Assembly (NCBI GenBank): GCA_003545515.1
Contig: DPYD01000020.1
Coordinates: 6,092-21,824, forward strand
Reading direction: 5' to 3'
Length of the DNA: 15,733 nt
Source: Candidatus Kaiserbacteria bacterium
Lineage (GTDB): Bacteria; Patescibacteriota; Minisyncoccia; Phycocordibacterales; UBA2100
The translations under genes were made by a program, and so were the position numbers. Below are positions 10,026 to 15,733 of this stretch, one piece after another. Position 1 is the stretch's first letter. Each line of letters opens with the position of its first letter. Below the pieces are notes generated by a model, which saw only the letters and a program-made list of their open reading frames with translations, made no database searches and was not told the origin of the DNA.

Positions 10026-10274
10026 ATGTATTTCGTTTATATACTGCAATGTGGAGACGGTACGTTATATACCGGTATCACAACCGATATGGTTCGCAGA
10101 TTGGAACAGCATAAAAAGGGTGTCGGGGGCCACTACACAAAAGCTAGAGGGGCGTACAAAGTTGTATTTACCGAGAAGCACTCAGACAGATCTTCGGCTC
10201 TGAAAAGAGAGGCAGAGATAAAAAAGTGGACACGAAAAAAGAAGCTCGAATTAATACAGCTTAGTCGCTCATAA
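10026..10274 (+). CDS. GIY-YIG domain endonuclease-like protein (UPF0213/YhbQ type)
   Basis: 82 residues forming a single GIY-YIG domain. The motif appears as VYILQ...LYTGITTD, followed by the catalytic-type arginine in DMVRRLEQHK, the HYTKAR segment, and the conserved glutamate in ALKREAEIKKW (Glu62). Stand-alone proteins of this kind are widespread; nuclease activity is assumed from the fold, and the substrate is unknown. It is divergent from tgt and convergent with the minus-strand gene at 10362-10718, with a palindromic hairpin between the stops. No Shine-Dalgarno is evident before ATG 10026. Confidence 0.9.
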   Translation: MYFVYILQCGDGTLYTGITTDMVRRLEQHKKGVGGHYTKARGAYKVVFTEKHSDRSSALKREAEIKKWTRKKKLELIQLSRS

Positions 10275-11658: not shown

Positions 11659-11751
11659 CAACCTCGCTATTGACGATGATCTCTTTTCTCACGATAGATT
11701 TGTATCATAAGCACAAGAATCATTCTGCGCTTATTGGAAAGCGGGAGATTT

Positions 11752-11772
11752 CCCCGCAGCTCTGCTGCGGGG
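11752..11772. repeat. GC-rich hairpin CCCCGCAGC/GCTGCGGGG
   Basis: Perfect 9-bp stem with a 3-nt loop (TCT). It lies in the gene-free interval 11644-12033. I associate such CCCCGCAGC...GCTGCGGGG hairpins with dispersed repeats or IS200/IS605-like ends in bacterial genomes; no transposase is present here. Confidence 0.7.
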
Positions 11773-11792
11773 ATGAATGGCGCGTAGAGTTT

Positions 11793-11813
11793 GAAGCGGT
11801 AGTAAGCCGCTTC
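11793..11813. other. Hairpin GAAGCGG/CCGCTTC
   Basis: 7-bp perfect stem with a 7-nt loop, 20 nt after the previous hairpin and before the large palindrome. It appears to be part of the same structured repeat block. Confidence 0.5.
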
Positions 11814-11822
11814 TCTATCCCC

Positions 11823-11850
11823 GCCTGCGCCAAGGCTTTGGCGGGCAGGC
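11823..11850. repeat. Imperfect palindrome GCCTGC-GCCAA / TTGGC-GG-GCAGGC
   Basis: Two stacked stems (6 and 5 bp) with a 2-nt bulge and a 4-nt loop. GC-rich intergenic palindromes of the form GCCTGC...GCAGGC are, in my experience, frequent in Parcubacteria. It abuts the poly-A that begins the 139-bp element. Confidence 0.65.
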
Positions 11851-11989
11851 AAAAAAACAGCCGGGTGCCGCCCAGCCCCAGTTTTGCAGTGAGGGTTTTG
11901 TTATGGCACGGAAAACAAAAGTATGCGTTCGTGTAATCGGAGTCACCGAGTACCGAGTGCAAAACTGGGGCTGGGCGGCCTGTTTTATG
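11851..11989 (+). repeat. 139-bp terminal-inverted-repeat element, copy 1
   Basis: Starts with seven A. Outer arms are AAAACAG (11854-11860) and CTGTTTT (11980-11986); inner arms are 22-bp perfect inverted repeats at 11867-11888 and 11958-11979, with a 6-nt bulge CCGGGT (11861-11866) on the left. The core of 69 bp (11889-11957) carries a sub-stem TTTTGTT/AACAAAA and a tandem ACCGAGT-ACCGAGT. A second, inverted copy lies at 15594-15732 with 5 differences over 139 positions. Here the element fills the region upstream of obg. Read on the minus strand it ends as a stem plus T7, like a terminator. No transposase and no clear target-site duplication are seen. Confidence 0.85.
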
Positions 11990-12018
11990 TAGTCATGTAT
12001 AATATTGAGAAGCAATTG

Positions 12019-12027
12019 TGATAGCAT
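12019..12027 (+). promoter_or_regulatory. obg: Extended -10 box, leaderless start of obg
   Basis: TGATAGCAT (TG-n-TAGCAT), then 6 nt (GCTCGC), then ATG 12034. A second candidate, TATAAT at 11998-12003, would give a leader of about 25 nt. No Shine-Dalgarno is present. Confidence 0.5.
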
Positions 12028-12033
12028 GCTCGC

Positions 12034-12978
12034 ATGCTTATTGACGATGTAACGGTTCGGCTCGAAGCCGGACATGGAGGTCACGGGTCTGTGGCGTTCA
12101 ATAAAGTGCGACTCTCGCAAGGACCTACGGGTGGTGACGGAGGGCGCGGAGGAAGTTTTTATTTTGAGGGAGTTTCTGACATAAACGCACTCGCCTTCTT
12201 TTCAGGCAGAAAGGTTCTCCGAGCAGAGAACGGCAAGAATGGGAGAGGTCAATTTATAGACGGTAAAAATGGTACGGATATGGTATTGAAAGTGCCGGCA
12301 GGGACGAGAATTACGAATCAAGGTACCGGGTTTATGCAGGAAATAACAGAAGTTGGAGAGAGGATTTTAGCCGCTGGCGGCGGGAGCGGAGGAAGGGGAA
12401 ATTTCAAATTTCGCTCATCAACGAATACCACGCCAAAGGAGTCGGAGGATGGAAAGAAGGGTGATATTGTCGAGTGTCATTTAGAGCTCAGACTCATCGC
12501 TGACGTGGGCCTTGTGGGACTGCCGAATGCCGGAAAATCGAGCTTACTCAATGAGCTTACGAACGCCAAAAGCAAAGTCGCACATTACGCTTTCACGACA
12601 TTGGAACCGCACCTCGGGGCGTACTACGGACGCATTATTGCAGACATCCCCGGTCTAATTGAAGGAGCATCGTCTGGGAAAGGACTTGGCGTGAAATTTC
12701 TGAAGCATATTGAACGGACAAAACGAATTTTCCACCTAATATCCGCTGAGTCTGAAGACCCAGTATACGACTATAAGATCCTTCGTAGGGAATTGGAGAT
12801 ATACAATCCCGAATTGGCTAAGAAAGAAGAGCAAGTATTCTTGACGAAAAGTGATTCCGTTTCATCCGAAAAACTGGAAACCTCCCTAAGGGCTCTCGAG
12901 GACGATGGTGTAAAATCTATACCCATATCGGTACTTGATGCAGAAAGTCTAGAGTCGGTGAAGAGATTGTTGTCATAA
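12034..12978 (+). CDS. obg: Obg/CgtA family GTPase
   Basis: 314 residues: a Gly-rich Obg fold (about 1-155, with GGDGGRGG and AAGGGSGGRGNFKF) and a GTPase domain. G1 is GLPNAGKSS (162-170), the switch I threonines lie in FTTLEPHLG, G3 is DIPGLIEG (Asp204), G4 is TKSD (271-274, with Thr where Asn is usual) and G5 is near PISVLDAES. No C-terminal OCT domain is present, in line with compact CPR versions. Obg binds the 50S subunit and links ribosome assembly to GTP levels; it is normally essential. ATG 12034 starts the canonical N-terminus (MLIDDVTVRLEAGHGG). The methyltransferase gene follows 5 nt after the stop, forming an operon. Confidence 0.95.
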   Translation: MLIDDVTVRLEAGHGGHGSVAFNKVRLSQGPTGGDGGRGGSFYFEGVSDINALAFFSGRKVLRAENGKNGRGQFIDGKNGTDMVLKVPAGTRITNQGTGFMQEITEVGERILAAGGGSGGRGNFKFRSSTNTTPKESEDGKKGDIVECHLELRLIADVGLVGLPNAGKSSLLNELTNAKSKVAHYAFTTLEPHLGAYYGRIIADIPGLIEGASSGKGLGVKFLKHIERTKRIFHLISAESEDPVYDYKILRRELEIYNPELAKKEEQVFLTKSDSVSSEKLETSLRALEDDGVKSIPISVLDAESLESVKRLLS

Positions 12979-12983
12979 CATGT

Positions 12984-13547
12984 ATGTCGTTTATAACAGA
13001 AGCGATACTTCGACCAAAGAATATTGGGGCAGTGGCTCCCAGCTCCAAAAGACTTGCGAAACTGATGACAGAAAACGCTGATTTAAAACATGCCAAAGTT
13101 GTCGTGGAGCTTGGGCCTGGAACAGGAGTATTTACAGAATTGATTTTGCAAGAAATTCCTGACAGTGCGGTTTTTATGGCGATTGAGCAGAACGAACATT
13201 TTGTCACAATAATGCGAGCACAATACCCAACCGTTGATACCATACATGGTTCGGCAGAACATCTTAAAAACTACCTCAAAGAGCGGGGAGCTGAATCCTG
13301 TGACAAAATACTATCCGGTCTACCCTGGGCATCGTTTGACGAAAGATTACAGCGATTACTGCTATCAAAGATATACGAATCGTTGTCTCCTGATGGAGTT
13401 TTCTTGACTTTCGCATACTATCCTATTAACCATCTTCCGAGAGGAAGAACATTTAAAAGACAGCTACGTCGTTATTTTAAAGACATAAAGAAAACTAGAG
13501 TAGTCCTCAATGTACCTCCTGCGTTTGTGTACATTTGTAAGAGGTAA
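12984..13547 (+). CDS. Class I SAM methyltransferase, PmtA/phospholipid N-methyltransferase-like
   Basis: 187-residue protein starting at ATG 12984, 5 nt after obg. The opening PKNIGAVAPSSKRLAKLM and motif I VELGPGTGVFTELIL (41-55) are typical of the PmtA-like methyltransferases; the acidic end of strand 2 lies in AIEQNEHF, and motif IV reads SGLPWASF (111-118), a pattern shared with PmtA-type enzymes. The C-terminal KKTRVVLNVPPAFVYICKR also fits. Substrates could be phosphatidylethanolamine or another amine lipid, but rRNA adenine dimethylases share much of this fold, so the substrate is uncertain. Its pairing with obg does not settle this. Confidence 0.83.
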   Translation: MSFITEAILRPKNIGAVAPSSKRLAKLMTENADLKHAKVVVELGPGTGVFTELILQEIPDSAVFMAIEQNEHFVTIMRAQYPTVDTIHGSAEHLKNYLKERGAESCDKILSGLPWASFDERLQRLLLSKIYESLSPDGVFLTFAYYPINHLPRGRTFKRQLRRYFKDIKKTRVVLNVPPAFVYICKR

Positions 13548-13579
13548 TCGCAAGGTCGGTTACTATAGGACACGACGTA

Positions 13580-13607
13580 TTGTTTTGTTGGAGTGTTTGA
13601 GTAGTAT
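13580..13607 (+). promoter_or_regulatory. Possible promoter for the 53-residue ORF
   Basis: TTGTTT (13580-13585) and TAGTAT (13602-13607) with a 16-bp spacer, about 50 nt upstream of ATG 13660. Acceptable but not strong. Confidence 0.35.
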
Positions 13608-13659
13608 AAGCACAGGCGATGTATGTGGATGCATCGCAAAGGCCGTAAAGGAGGTTAAC

Positions 13660-13821
13660 ATGCCCAAGAAATTATTGAGAACAGGAATGGTGCTCGAGGC
13701 CGAGCCGCGCGTGGATGAGCGGGGACAGCTTGTCACTGAAGCGCCATCAAACCCGGCGGCTTCAAAGGAAGGAAAGGGTGATCACGCAGGCCATGATGAG
13801 TTAATTCCTCCGAAACAATAA
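13660..13821 (+). CDS. 53-residue hydrophilic protein, unknown
   Basis: Starts at ATG 13660 with a perfect Shine-Dalgarno (AAAGGAGG, 6 nt spacing), the best in the window. The product MPKKLLRTGMVLEAEPRVDE.. continues with a Pro/Ser/Ala-rich middle and a His/Asp/Glu tail (DHAGHDELIPPKQ); no membrane helix, no cysteine. It looks largely disordered. The frame is open further upstream, but the ribosome site fixes this start. I do not recognise a family. Confidence 0.6.
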   Translation: MPKKLLRTGMVLEAEPRVDERGQLVTEAPSNPAASKEGKGDHAGHDELIPPKQ

Positions 13822-13849
13822 TTGTGGAGGGCATCTTTTTTCTGGCACA

Positions 13850-13886
13850 ATTTCGACCTTTCGTGCAAAGCGCGGAAGGTCGAAAT
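13850..13886. other. Hairpin ATTTCGACCTT/AAGGTCGAAAT
   Basis: 11-bp perfect stem with a 15-nt loop, 28 nt after the 53-residue ORF. It may terminate that transcript, though no T-run follows on the plus strand. Between here and 14002 I see nothing further. Confidence 0.5.
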
Positions 13887-14002
13887 CTTGCCGGAATAGT
13901 TGAAAAGTGGGGAAAACCCGCATGTATTTTCAGGTAACCATGTGGGTCACGATATTCTTTTTGGTAGTGCGTTTGCTCCAACTTGGGAGATGGCATGTGA
14001 AA

Positions 14003-14024
14003 AGCGGAGACAAGTGTCTCCGCT
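14003..14024 (-). terminator. Terminator of the minus-strand exported peptide gene
   Basis: 10-bp perfect stem AGCGGAGACA/TGTCTCCGCT with a minimal loop. On the minus strand it is followed by TTTT and lies about 20 nt after the stop of the exported peptide gene. Confidence 0.7.
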
Positions 14025-14045
14025 GATCTCTCCAGATTATAAATA

Positions 14046-14216
14046 TTAGAAATCCGGTCTTTCCGGGCGTTCGAGACGTTCCGAGCGAGTACCGTCTCTC
14101 TCTGGCCTCTCGGTTCGTACGTCGTTCCTTTCAGCGCGCTCTGGTCGCTCTGAGGCGGCGGCCGCAAAGGGGGCGAACGCCAAAAGCGACAAAACAGTAG
14201 CAATTATTTTTTTCAT
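14046..14216 (-). CDS. Small exported Arg/Glu-repeat peptide
   Basis: 56 residues from ATG 14216. A clear signal peptide (MKKIIATVLSLLAFAPFAAA, cleavage after AAA) is followed by about 35 residues built of RPER-like units: SERPERAER, RTERPERDG, RSERLERPERPDF. The mature peptide is almost only Arg, Glu, Pro, Asp, Ser and Thr, and so nearly charge-balanced and disordered. The frame is open upstream to 14336, but the signal peptide fixes the start. TATACA lies 4 nt before the ATG and there is no Shine-Dalgarno, so a leaderless or near-leaderless transcript is likely. A terminator follows. Function unknown. Confidence 0.65.
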   Translation of the reverse strand: MKKIIATVLSLLAFAPFAAAASERPERAERNDVRTERPERDGTRSERLERPERPDF

Positions 14217-14344
14217 AACTTGTATAGAATTTGCGAATAATGCGACCTTTATCTGCAGAGTACCACGATGAACCAATGGACTGAATTCGAATTGGTGGAT
14301 ATTTGAGGAACACATAAGTGGTGAGTTTTTTGGCATACTTCGTT

Positions 14345-14375
14345 AAAGACGACCGCCATAGGTGGCGTGGTCTTT
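14345..14375. other. Imperfect hairpin AAAGAC...GTCTTT
   Basis: Stem AAAGAC/GTCTTT, a small internal loop, then GCCA/TGGC around TAGG; GATGTTTT follows on the plus strand. It resembles a terminator, but no plus-strand gene ends here. It lies between the exported peptide gene and the DUF1905 remnant; a second hairpin (GAAGATT/AATCTTC, 14391-14412) follows. Confidence 0.4.
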
Positions 14376-14417
14376 GATGTTTTCCTGGCTGAAGATTTGT
14401 GGGACAATCTTCGGATC

Positions 14418-14513
14418 ATGGTGAAGCCGACGAAAAAGAAATACAAGGTAAACTCGGGGGTGTGGCTTTACCCGGGAATGGCTGGATGACATTTTGTAAA
14501 TAGTGATGTGTAA
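14418..14513 (+). pseudogene. DUF1905-type protein remnant, N-terminal fragment
   Basis: ATG 14418 opens MVKPTKKKYKVNSGVWLYPG-MAG and meets TGA at 14487-14489. The same frame then reads HFVNSDV before TAA at 14511-14513. The pattern KYKV.S.VWLYPG..GWHFV is the N-terminus of DUF1905 proteins as I know it, with TGA where the conserved Trp of GWHFV should be. The rest of the domain (about 70 residues) is missing and the metalloprotease frame begins at the break. I read this as a degraded gene truncated by a deletion. No function remains likely. A 23-residue peptide could still be made. Confidence 0.5.
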
Positions 14514-14886
14514 ACATATGATTTGGATGCGTCGGAATCGTCTGCAGTATGTGCGCTTTCGTGAAAGTGCACGCACGCTTGTTCATGAGCGCATAAATCA
14601 TTTCAATTACATGTACGGATTCGAGTTCGGGAGAGTGTACATAAAGAATCATAAATCTCGTTGGGGCAGTTGCTCTAGAAAAGGGAATCTCAATTTCAAC
14701 TACAAGATCATCTTCCTCCCATCAGAGATTGCCGATTACATCATCGTTCACGAACTTTGTCACCTTGCCGAATTCAACCATTCCAAGCGCTTTTGGAGTC
14801 ATGTATTTCGCGCTATCCCTGATCATAAGCGTCGTCGCAAGCATTTGCGTCTTATAGAGAGAGGAAGGGTTTCTCGCTCAGGGTGA
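14503..14886 (+). CDS. YgjP/DUF45-type zinc metalloprotease
   Basis: Up to 127 residues. The zinc motif is VHELCHLAEFNHSKRFW: HELCH (His83, Glu84, His87) with third ligand His93, and the upstream family signature RWGSCSRKGNLNFNYKI (53-69) is intact. Related full-length YgjP proteins are about 170-240 residues; short versions with only the C-terminal catalytic part occur in CPR genomes. The start is unsure: GTG 14503, ATG 14506, ATG 14518 or ATG 14527 are in frame and none has a Shine-Dalgarno; conserved sequence begins near RRNRLQYVRF. The 5' end overlaps the DUF1905 remnant, so a deletion may have altered the original start region. It is probably cytoplasmic; substrates are unknown. Confidence 0.85.
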   Translation: MMCKHMIWMRRNRLQYVRFRESARTLVHERINHFNYMYGFEFGRVYIKNHKSRWGSCSRKGNLNFNYKIIFLPSEIADYIIVHELCHLAEFNHSKRFWSHVFRAIPDHKRRRKHLRLIERGRVSRSG

Positions 14887-14938
14887 AGCGTGGCGGCATT
14901 TCGAACGGTGACCTCAGTGGAACCAAGTCGCCACGCAC

Positions 14939-14968
14939 TTCACAAAAGTAGGATATATGAGATAAGAT
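14939..14968 (+). promoter_or_regulatory. Promoter, leaderless start of the anchored exported protein
   Basis: TTCACA (14939-14944), an 18-bp spacer and TAAGAT (14963-14968), then exactly 6 nt (GTAGGT) and ATG 14975. Confidence 0.55.
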
Positions 14969-14974
14969 GTAGGT

Positions 14975-15598
14975 ATGCTCAAATACTTTGTTGGAATCGT
15001 CATTCTCGTGGTTATCGCGGTTGGAGGTTATTATACTTGGGATTTTTTCAAGCGGGCTCCACAAAGTCCGAAGGTAGACAACACTACTCCCTCTATTCAG
15101 ATGGCGACAAGTACATATGCGACGACGACTTTTTCGATTGTGTACCAAAACGATTTTGCTGTCGATGACCTATACTTCTATGACCAATTCGCGGGGAAGC
15201 CGATAGATGGTGTCAAATTCACTATTCCTCTTACGATGGCAACAGGCACCACTCTTTCAAGTGATACGTATCTTTCTATAGAGACTCTTCCTCGTGCCCA
15301 GAGTTGCTCTGGTGATATCTATGTCGTTCCCAACGTTGATGCACGGGAAGTTGCTGAAGGAGGTACGGTATATTCAGTAGCGACGACTTCAAGCGCCGCG
15401 GCGGGCAATATGTATGAAGAGCAGGTTTGGGCTATCAAAGATAGTTCTCCATGCACTGCTGTTCGGTATTTTATACATTCTACGGATATAGGTAACTACG
15501 AACTCGGTGCCATACGTGAGTTTGATCGCCCGGCTCTTCTGCGTGCGTTTGATACATTGCGTCGGGCGCTCTTATTGAAATCTCCTCAAACTCCATAA
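14975..15598 (+). CDS. Anchored exported protein of unknown function
   Basis: 207 residues: N-terminal membrane helix (YFVGIVILVVIAVGGYYTW, about 4-22), a short linker rich in Ser and Thr, then a beta-rich external domain. Two cysteines (in RAQSCSGD and SSPCTAV) may form a disulfide. The stretch FTIPLTMATGTTLSSDTYLS with ETLPRAQSC is a pattern I recall from Parcubacteria proteins with no assigned function. The start at ATG 14975 is supported by the -10 box 6 nt upstream. The stop TAA overlaps the edge of the second 139-bp element, which can act as its terminator. Confidence 0.78.
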   Translation: MLKYFVGIVILVVIAVGGYYTWDFFKRAPQSPKVDNTTPSIQMATSTYATTTFSIVYQNDFAVDDLYFYDQFAGKPIDGVKFTIPLTMATGTTLSSDTYLSIETLPRAQSCSGDIYVVPNVDAREVAEGGTVYSVATTSSAAAGNMYEEQVWAIKDSSPCTAVRYFIHSTDIGNYELGAIREFDRPALLRAFDTLRRALLLKSPQTP

Positions 15599-15732
15599 AA
15601 CAGGCCGCCCAGCCCTAGTTTTGCACTCGGTACTCGGTGACTCCGATTACACGAACGCATGCATTTGTTTTCCGTGCCATAACAAAACCCTCACTGCAAA
15701 ACTAGGGCTGGGCGGCACCTGGCTGTTTTTTT
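15594..15732 (-). repeat. 139-bp terminal-inverted-repeat element, copy 2 (inverted)
   Basis: Inverted copy of 11851-11989. Arms: 15604-15625 and 15695-15716, perfect 22-bp inverted repeats; outer AAAACAG/CTGTTTT at 15597-15603 and 15723-15729; bulge ACCTGG at 15717-15722; T7 at 15726-15732. Differences from copy 1, in copy 1 orientation: G to A in the bulge, C to T in the left arm, A to T and T to C in the core, and G to A in the right arm. The two arm changes pair with each other. It lies directly behind the stop of the anchored exported protein gene and in this orientation forms a stem plus T-run terminator for it. The window ends one base later. Confidence 0.85.
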
Positions 15733-15733
15733 G

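What the first reader, a model, noticed from the sequence alone, without database searches (positions are those of the whole stretch)
11851..15732. Duplicated 139-bp inverted-repeat element with compensatory stem change
Seen: two copies (11851-11989 plus, 15594-15732 minus) with 29 paired bases per arm (7 outer + 22 inner) around a 69-bp core. Only five substitutions separate them. Two are at opposite positions of the stem (11879 C to T and 11967 G to A), so both copies keep a perfect 22-bp stem. Inference: the folded form is selected, or the arms are copied from each other. The core is also nearly unchanged (2 of 69), so it is more than a terminator loop. It could be a non-autonomous mobile element moved in trans by a hairpin-recognising transposase, or a structured RNA. 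It matches no family I know.
Basis: partly seen in the sequence, partly recalled or inferred. Interest (0 to 1): 0.78.

Follow-up and report, generated by a model that had tools for sequence, protein, structure and literature searches.

The report
Mobile hairpin tied to GIY-YIG nuclease
The repeated hairpin in this small bacterial genome looks like a jumping piece of DNA whose relatives land on loops of essential RNAs such as RNase P and ribosomal RNA, and whose longer relatives carry a tiny DNA-cutting enzyme that may be what spreads them.

Summary
In detail: two copies, five substitutions, one compensated stem pair. But the unit is a 103-nt hairpin (11872-11974; 15609-15711) with arms CC(A/C)GC-N-CCA-N-TTTTG, nested in another repeat that supplies the outer 7 bp. 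Seven type-A copies (one interrupted by Ns) lie in the own genome and seven in G016. The arm motif occurs in 23 of 52 genus genomes and 33 of 148 of the order. Arms pair in 192 of 192 cells and covary. Relatives sit in RNase P RNA, 16S, 23S, group I introns and an FMN riboswitch. Five units of 287-306 nt with near-canonical arms carry a small GIY-YIG nuclease ORF, four intact; ORF-less units share a 23S site and an RNase P site with ORF-bearing ones and coexist with them in four genomes. In the genus, 31 of 110 GIY-YIG loci are hugged by inverted repeats. Best reading: a non-autonomous hairpin of a GIY-YIG-encoding, IVS-like mobile element family. Movement by the nuclease is inferred. Main weakness: no such nuclease unit was found in the window's own (79% complete) genome or in G016.

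The parts
11872..11974 (+). Hairpin unit, copy 1 (103 nt, type A): arms CCAGCCCCAGTTTTG / CAAAACTGGGGCTGG; with neighbouring paired bases the stem is 22 bp (11867-11888/11958-11979)
15609..15711 (-). Hairpin unit, copy 2 (103 nt, type A): arms with CCCTAG/CTAGGG
11889..11957 (+). 69-nt type-A core; 2 of 69 differ between the two copies; relatives have a central AACGCATGCGTT
11731..11988 (+). Outer repeat into which the unit is nested (approximate limits, by comparison with copies that lack the unit); its right end GGCCTGTTTTAT gives the outer 7-bp arm
15594..15733 (-). Remainder of the outer repeat around copy 2, cut by the end of contig C6

Best explanation
The 103-nt hairpin is a non-autonomous (ORF-less, MITE-like) member of a family of mobile hairpin elements of Patescibacteria. 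Full-length members (287-306 nt) have the same kind of inverted-repeat arms and encode one small (about 85 aa) GIY-YIG nuclease. Proposed mechanism: the nuclease cuts target DNA that codes for hairpin loops (or lies at palindrome centres) and an element copy is inserted by repair, with a short target duplication at some sites. Inside an RNA gene the arms fold on themselves and extend the host helix, so the insert is tolerated without splicing (or is cut out as rRNA intervening sequences are). Selection by the host for that fold, and one enzyme reading both ends, keep the arms complementary while their sequence drifts. Shown: dispersal, arm covariation, arms and sites shared with GIY-YIG units, coexistence, sites at stem-loops of known RNAs. 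Inferred: that the nuclease moves the ORF-less units, the repair step, and any RNA processing.
For: Dispersal: 145 motif hits in 23 of 52 genomes, reversed motif 3; 68 hits in 33 of 148, reversed 11; 60 stretches. Arm covariation. GIY-YIG ORF between near-canonical CCAGC arms in G026, G205, G128, WY5.bin43 (intact) and G163 (frameshifted). Five arm-sharing nucleases (two with diverged arms) form one clade, 100/96. Same 23S site holds ORF-bearing (L350, L233, L257) and ORF-less (L400, L396) units; same 3' RNase P site holds ORF-bearing L426 and ORF-less L397, L356. Coexistence of both forms in G026, G163, G205, WY5.bin43. Units inside Rfam RNAs; 16 of 58 units against 3.2 expected from coverage (loci were chosen by the units). 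Loop replaced. GIY-YIG ORFs bracketed by inverted repeats of 12 bp or more: 33 of 110, about 0.85 expected. 6-bp direct flanks.
Against: No CCAGC-armed GIY-YIG unit was found in G000 (79% complete; 4 GIY-YIG matches) or G016 (99%; 3 matches), though both hold the type-A units. Direct repeats flank only a minority of units, the window copies have none (1 of 6 matched; inverted 5 of 6). L351 and L251, which I also labelled CCAGC-armed, fall outside the clade. Phylum-wide, 26 of 29 GIY-YIG loci tested have no inverted repeat of 12 bp and only L340 of the other three hugs the ORF. The window copies are not inside a known RNA. Two hits are titled Verrucomicrobia. All data are assemblies, mostly MAGs.
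Confidence: 0.6

Rival explanations
1. REP/REPIN-like palindromes moved by a Y1 (RAYT or IS200-type) transposase that reads DNA hairpins.
For: Palindromic, dispersed; Y1_Tnp is present in 45 of 52 genus genomes.
Against: Y1 counts do not follow the arm motif (G064 and G012 have many units and no Y1 match; G011 and G033 the reverse). The inverted-repeat scan of ten Y1 loci showed CCAGC arms only at L026, about 1.1 kb from the Y1 match.
Confidence: 0.12
2. MITE of an ordinary DDE-type insertion sequence with CCAGC terminal repeats that was not sampled.
For: Covarying terminal repeats and 6-bp direct flanks at about 15 units (9 exact, 6 with 5 of 6, after removing array duplicates) are usual for such elements.
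Against: Among the arm hits followed partners lay within about 135 nt or were absent (six solo arms without partner: L113, L118, L123, L125, L127, L130); no pair 0.5-3 kb apart with a transposase was seen. ORF-bearing units carry GIY-YIG.
Confidence: 0.1
3. A fixed structured RNA or regulatory hairpin of the host, multiplied by ordinary duplication, its arms kept equal by template switching or gene conversion rather than by mobility.
For: Stable folds; type-A core about 82% alike between G000 and G016; quasi-palindrome correction is a known process (recalled).
Against: Unrelated interiors of 4 to over 100 nt behind the same arms; patchy presence; insertion into rnpB, rRNA, group I introns; no Rfam match in the window at gathering score.
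Confidence: 0.1

Closest known systems
Intervening sequences (IVS) of bacterial 23S rRNA, e.g. Coxiella (PMC4990558, abstract and passages seen)
   Same: Insert with complementary ends at a helix where a small tetraloop is replaced; may carry one ORF; thought to be selfish; seen at 23S here too.
   Different: Here also in RNase P RNA, 16S, group I introns, a riboswitch and intergenic repeats; ORF is GIY-YIG, not S23p/IVP; many ORF-less relatives. RNase III excision not tested.
GIY-YIG and short ORF-less inserts in CPR rRNA genes (PMC11270868, passages seen)
   Same: GIY-YIG in rRNA inserts that are not introns; short ORF-less inserts; many at top or base of stem-loops. Our units probably explain part of them.
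   Different: The passages seen name no inverted repeats or hairpins ('inverted', 'hairpin', 'palindrom' 0 occurrences) and no sites outside rRNA, and say GIY-YIG seems outside the context of homing.
MITEs (general)
   Same: Small, ORF-less, inverted-repeat derivatives sharing ends with a coding element.
   Different: Coding partner would be a nuclease, not a transposase; direct repeats only at a minority.
REP/REPIN with RAYT
   Same: Dispersed palindromes.
   Different: Y1 does not co-occur.
Rickettsia palindromic elements (recalled)
   Same: Palindromic elements that enter RNA genes and coding regions.
   Different: No comparison run; other phylum; no nuclease partner recalled.

Membership tests
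23S rRNA IVS | Hairpin insert replacing the loop of a 23S rRNA helix | tested here: met
   Met for relatives (L233: insert in a consensus LSU helix loop; L350, L257, L400, L396 at the same place by flanks). Not met for the window copies, which are intergenic.
23S rRNA IVS | Confined to 23S rRNA | tested here: not met
   Units also in RNase P, 16S, group I introns
23S rRNA IVS | Excised by RNase III without ligation | not testable with these tools
   needs RNA data
MITE | Terminal inverted repeats shared with a coding element | tested here: met
   CCAGC arms around GIY-YIG ORFs
MITE | Target-site duplication | tested here: inconclusive
   14 exact and 6 near 6-bp direct flanks in 137 arm pairs (control 0.7 and 1.7), about 9 and 6 after removing array duplicates; not in the window copies
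REP/REPIN-RAYT | Co-occurring Y1 transposase | tested here: not met
Group I intron | Catalytic core | tested here: not met
   No Rfam match in the window at gathering score
GIY-YIG homing element | Encodes a GIY-YIG nuclease | tested here: not met
   The window units have no ORF; relatives do (PF01541)
GIY-YIG homing element | Cuts and fills empty sites | not testable with these tools
   needs an assay
Rickettsia palindromic elements | Sequence relation | not tested
   recalled only

The most novel reading that the evidence does not exclude
A new class of minimal mobile element: one gene for a roughly 85-aa GIY-YIG nuclease enclosed by inverted-repeat arms, inserting at loops of structured-RNA genes, at stop/start (ATGA) and start-codon (TATG) junctions and at palindrome centres. 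It escapes harm because its own RNA folds into an extension of the host helix instead of being spliced. Several arm families, most of them tracking their own nuclease clade, have amplified ORF-less derivatives, of which the window hairpin is one. This would explain short and GIY-YIG inserts in CPR rRNA and RNase P genes and offers a route by which IVSs arise.
Probability: 0.5. Interest if true: 0.9.

Novelty: new variant of a known kind. Interest (0 to 1): 0.8.

Why it matters
CPR rRNA genes carry inserts of unexplained origin (PMC11270868, passages), and for bacterial IVSs transposition or a mobile ORF element are open hypotheses (PMC4990558, passages). A defined family with arms, ORF-bearing and ORF-less forms, repeated sites and a named candidate enzyme makes both directly testable. 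It would also be one of the smallest protein-coding mobile elements.

Tried and rejected
Y1/RAYT partner: no co-occurrence. Full insertion sequence with CCAGC ends: of 18 solo-arm regions fetched, most had a mismatched partner within about 135 nt and six had none (L113, L118, L123, L125, L127, L130). Rfam on the window: no match at gathering score. L062 looked like a chance hit (by eye). The L233/L257 site was first taken for tmRNA (note); Rfam shows 23S rRNA. T-box naming of the leaders in G005 and G026 rests on sequence motifs that I recall; Rfam gave only a 37-bit T-box match, below gathering (93), starting about 24 nt after a unit in L086/L132, and none in L179/L180. Type-A core as coding sequence: frames differ between copies and copy 2 has a stop in the arm (by eye), not supported. 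Literature: searches listed no description of hairpin-armed GIY-YIG elements that I could recognise from titles and abstract starts; passages were read in PMC11270868, PMC12455944 and PMC4990558 only; most subscription papers are not held.
Full report
OBSERVATION. The two copies are as described: five substitutions in 139 nt, two of them at paired positions, perfect 22-bp stems, strong folds. The window is G000:C6:6092-21824 and the contig stops one base after copy 2, a usual break at a repeat.

DISPERSAL. A DNA search matched 2 of 60 relatives at E<=1e-3, the own genome and G016. Type-A copies (69-nt core, AACGCATGCGTT centre): in G000 six complete (C6 twice, C61, C1, C37:1351, C9) and one interrupted by Ns (C37:7649), with a more distant one at C58; in G016 seven. 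A covariance model matched 16 of 52 genus genomes at E<=0.01; both strands of one place are counted, and at most 72 candidates per genome were scored. The motif CCMGCNCCANTTTTG gave 145 hits in 23 of 52 genus genomes against 3 for the reversed motif, and 68 hits in 33 of 148 genomes of the order against 11. Not every hit is paired: G008, G002 and G073 have single hits. An exact short-loop pattern over the genome-contig collection (one genome for each of 84,980 species) gave 60 stretches: 45 titled as Patescibacteria groups (Parcubacteria, Kaiserbacteria, Komeilibacteria, Nomurabacteria, Taylorbacteria and others), 13 only 'bacterium isolate', 2 Verrucomicrobia.

ANATOMY. The arms are constant, the interior is not: units of 34-38 nt, about 47-53 nt, 102-104 nt (most of them at least two unrelated types) and longer. 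In 13 aligned type-A copies (12 distinct) the arms pair in 192 of 192 cells; 5 of 16 pairs have changes on both sides, 16 such cells against 4.0 in shuffles. The outer 7 bp belong to a second repeat that exists without the hairpin at C64, C62 and C34.

SITES. Relatives overlap Rfam RNAs. RNase P: L397, L407, L415 and L423 at gathering score; L163, L164, L165, L359, L360, L356 and L367 below it but E<=4e-6. Group I introns: L094/L388 (two units), L361/L421, L365/L412, L368, L374, L390, L418, L424; L088 below gathering. 16S: L358/L371. 23S: L396, L400 (and the ORF units L350, L233, L257). FMN riboswitch: L096, 59.0 bits against a gathering score of 66.2. In some searches (56 of the 60 loci) 16 of 58 units lie in an RNA at gathering score; these non-tRNA matches cover 23,460 of 419,537 bases, which would give 3.2 by chance, but the loci were chosen by the units. 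A unit in G016:C20 encloses a 5S gene. Occupied against empty: a G014 rnpB stem has its tetraloop replaced by a unit, and in G026 a unit stands in place of a short hairpin before GAGGAAAG. Of 42 rnpB genes in which the script found its anchor (46 genomes had a match) three carry a unit: G014, G016, G026. In L233 the 23S insert falls in the loop of a consensus helix.

GIY-YIG LINK. A 306-nt G026 unit with arms CCAGCCCCAGTTTTG holds a complete GIY-YIG ORF. Others with near-canonical arms: G205 (287 nt), G128 (303 nt, a different class), WY5.bin43 (305 nt), intact; G163 (305 nt, in 23S), frameshifted. ORF-less units coexist in G026, G163, G205 and WY5.bin43. By flanks and Rfam, the same 23S site holds ORF-bearing L350, L233, L257 and ORF-less L400, L396; by flanks, the same 3' RNase P site holds ORF-bearing L426 and ORF-less L397, L356. 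The L426 locus (RNase P by motif; not scanned with Rfam) holds, by eye, a second GIY-YIG-like ORF between other arms and an ORF-less CCAGC unit as well.

GENERALITY. Of 110 GIY-YIG loci of the genus (30, 80 fetched; the full set is larger and one of the 110, L198, was read at a wrong place), 33 have an exact inverted repeat of 12 bp or more within 150 nt on both sides; mismatched flanks predict about 0.85. 31 hug the ORF (within 60 nt on each side); they are 31 of 67 loci outside, and 0 of 43 inside, a 43-row clade that contains the window's own GIY-YIG. On the tree five arm families need 5 changes (shuffled mean 18.0, 0 of 200 as low); L272, L233, L257, L340 and L426 form one clade (100/96), while L351 and L251 fall outside it. 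The tree has only 90 columns and its bootstrap had not settled; I assigned arm labels by eye, and the arms of L233 and L257 are diverged. Other families sit at ATGA or TATG with 4-bp direct repeats and have short forms: 9 of 16 CCCGTTAG and 3 of 6 CCCGCACAC hairpins are 56-132 nt, too short for the ORF; none was seen for CACACGAAATGAC (0 of 4) or CCCTGTTAAAT (0 of 3) in the loci held. Against generality: of 29 GIY-YIG loci tested across the phylum 3 have such repeats and one hugs the ORF. Invariant in 19 arm-flanked proteins are R26, H30 and E63, which I recall as active-site positions. NCBIfam places three of them near group I intron endonucleases, far below the cut-off; the one PDB match is weak, UPF0213 1zg2, E 0.0023.

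INSERTION MARKS. Of 137 arm pairs, tandem arrays counted several times, 14 have exact 6-bp direct flanks and 6 have 5 of 6 (control 0.7 and 1.7). After removing array duplicates 9 and 6 remain; 8 of the 9 are GTNNAC, all but one of the 9 in 34-39-nt forms. Most units show none. The window copies have inverted rather than direct flanks (5 of 6 against 1 of 6).

READING. Shown are structure, distribution, shared arms, shared sites and coexistence. That the nuclease moves the ORF-less hairpins is inferred, and weakened by the absence of a CCAGC-armed GIY-YIG in G000 (4 GIY-YIG matches) and G016 (3 matches) in what I searched. The nearest published things are 23S IVSs and the unexplained GIY-YIG and short inserts in CPR rRNA genes; I found no description of the family in the held library by the searches named.

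Noticed in passing
window 10026-10274 (+): Lone small GIY-YIG ORF (PF01541) without inverted-repeat arms; belongs to the large unarmed clade.
   Followed up: yes
L131 2229-2398 (G016:C20): A unit of the family encloses a complete 5S rRNA match and is itself flanked by 5S-like sequence.
   Followed up: partly
L102, L104, L105, L078, L087 and similar 103-nt units: Second interior type seems to hold a short reading frame MQ(N/Y).. to ..(F/C)W.SKL running through the right arm; by eye only.
   Followed up: no
L192, L208, L258, L268, L271, L277: GIY-YIG units inserted at ATGA junctions; some ORFs seem to start in the left ATGA and stop in the right one, keeping stop/start overlap of the neighbours.
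   Followed up: partly
L395, L382, L404, L378: Short arrays of 34-37-nt CCAGC hairpins separated by GTTTACCC-like spacers in Komeilibacteria and Parcubacteria.
   Followed up: no
L158 and L178 (rnpB of G075 and G020): Another hairpin, CCGGCACTTTCTA.., at different places of two RNase P genes, suggesting more hairpin families (by eye).
   Followed up: no
L397 and L423: Two records titled Verrucomicrobia carry CCAGC units in RNase P RNA: transfer or misbinning, not tested.
   Followed up: no
window 13840-13896 and 2425-2474: Two further long inverted repeats with short loops.
   Followed up: no
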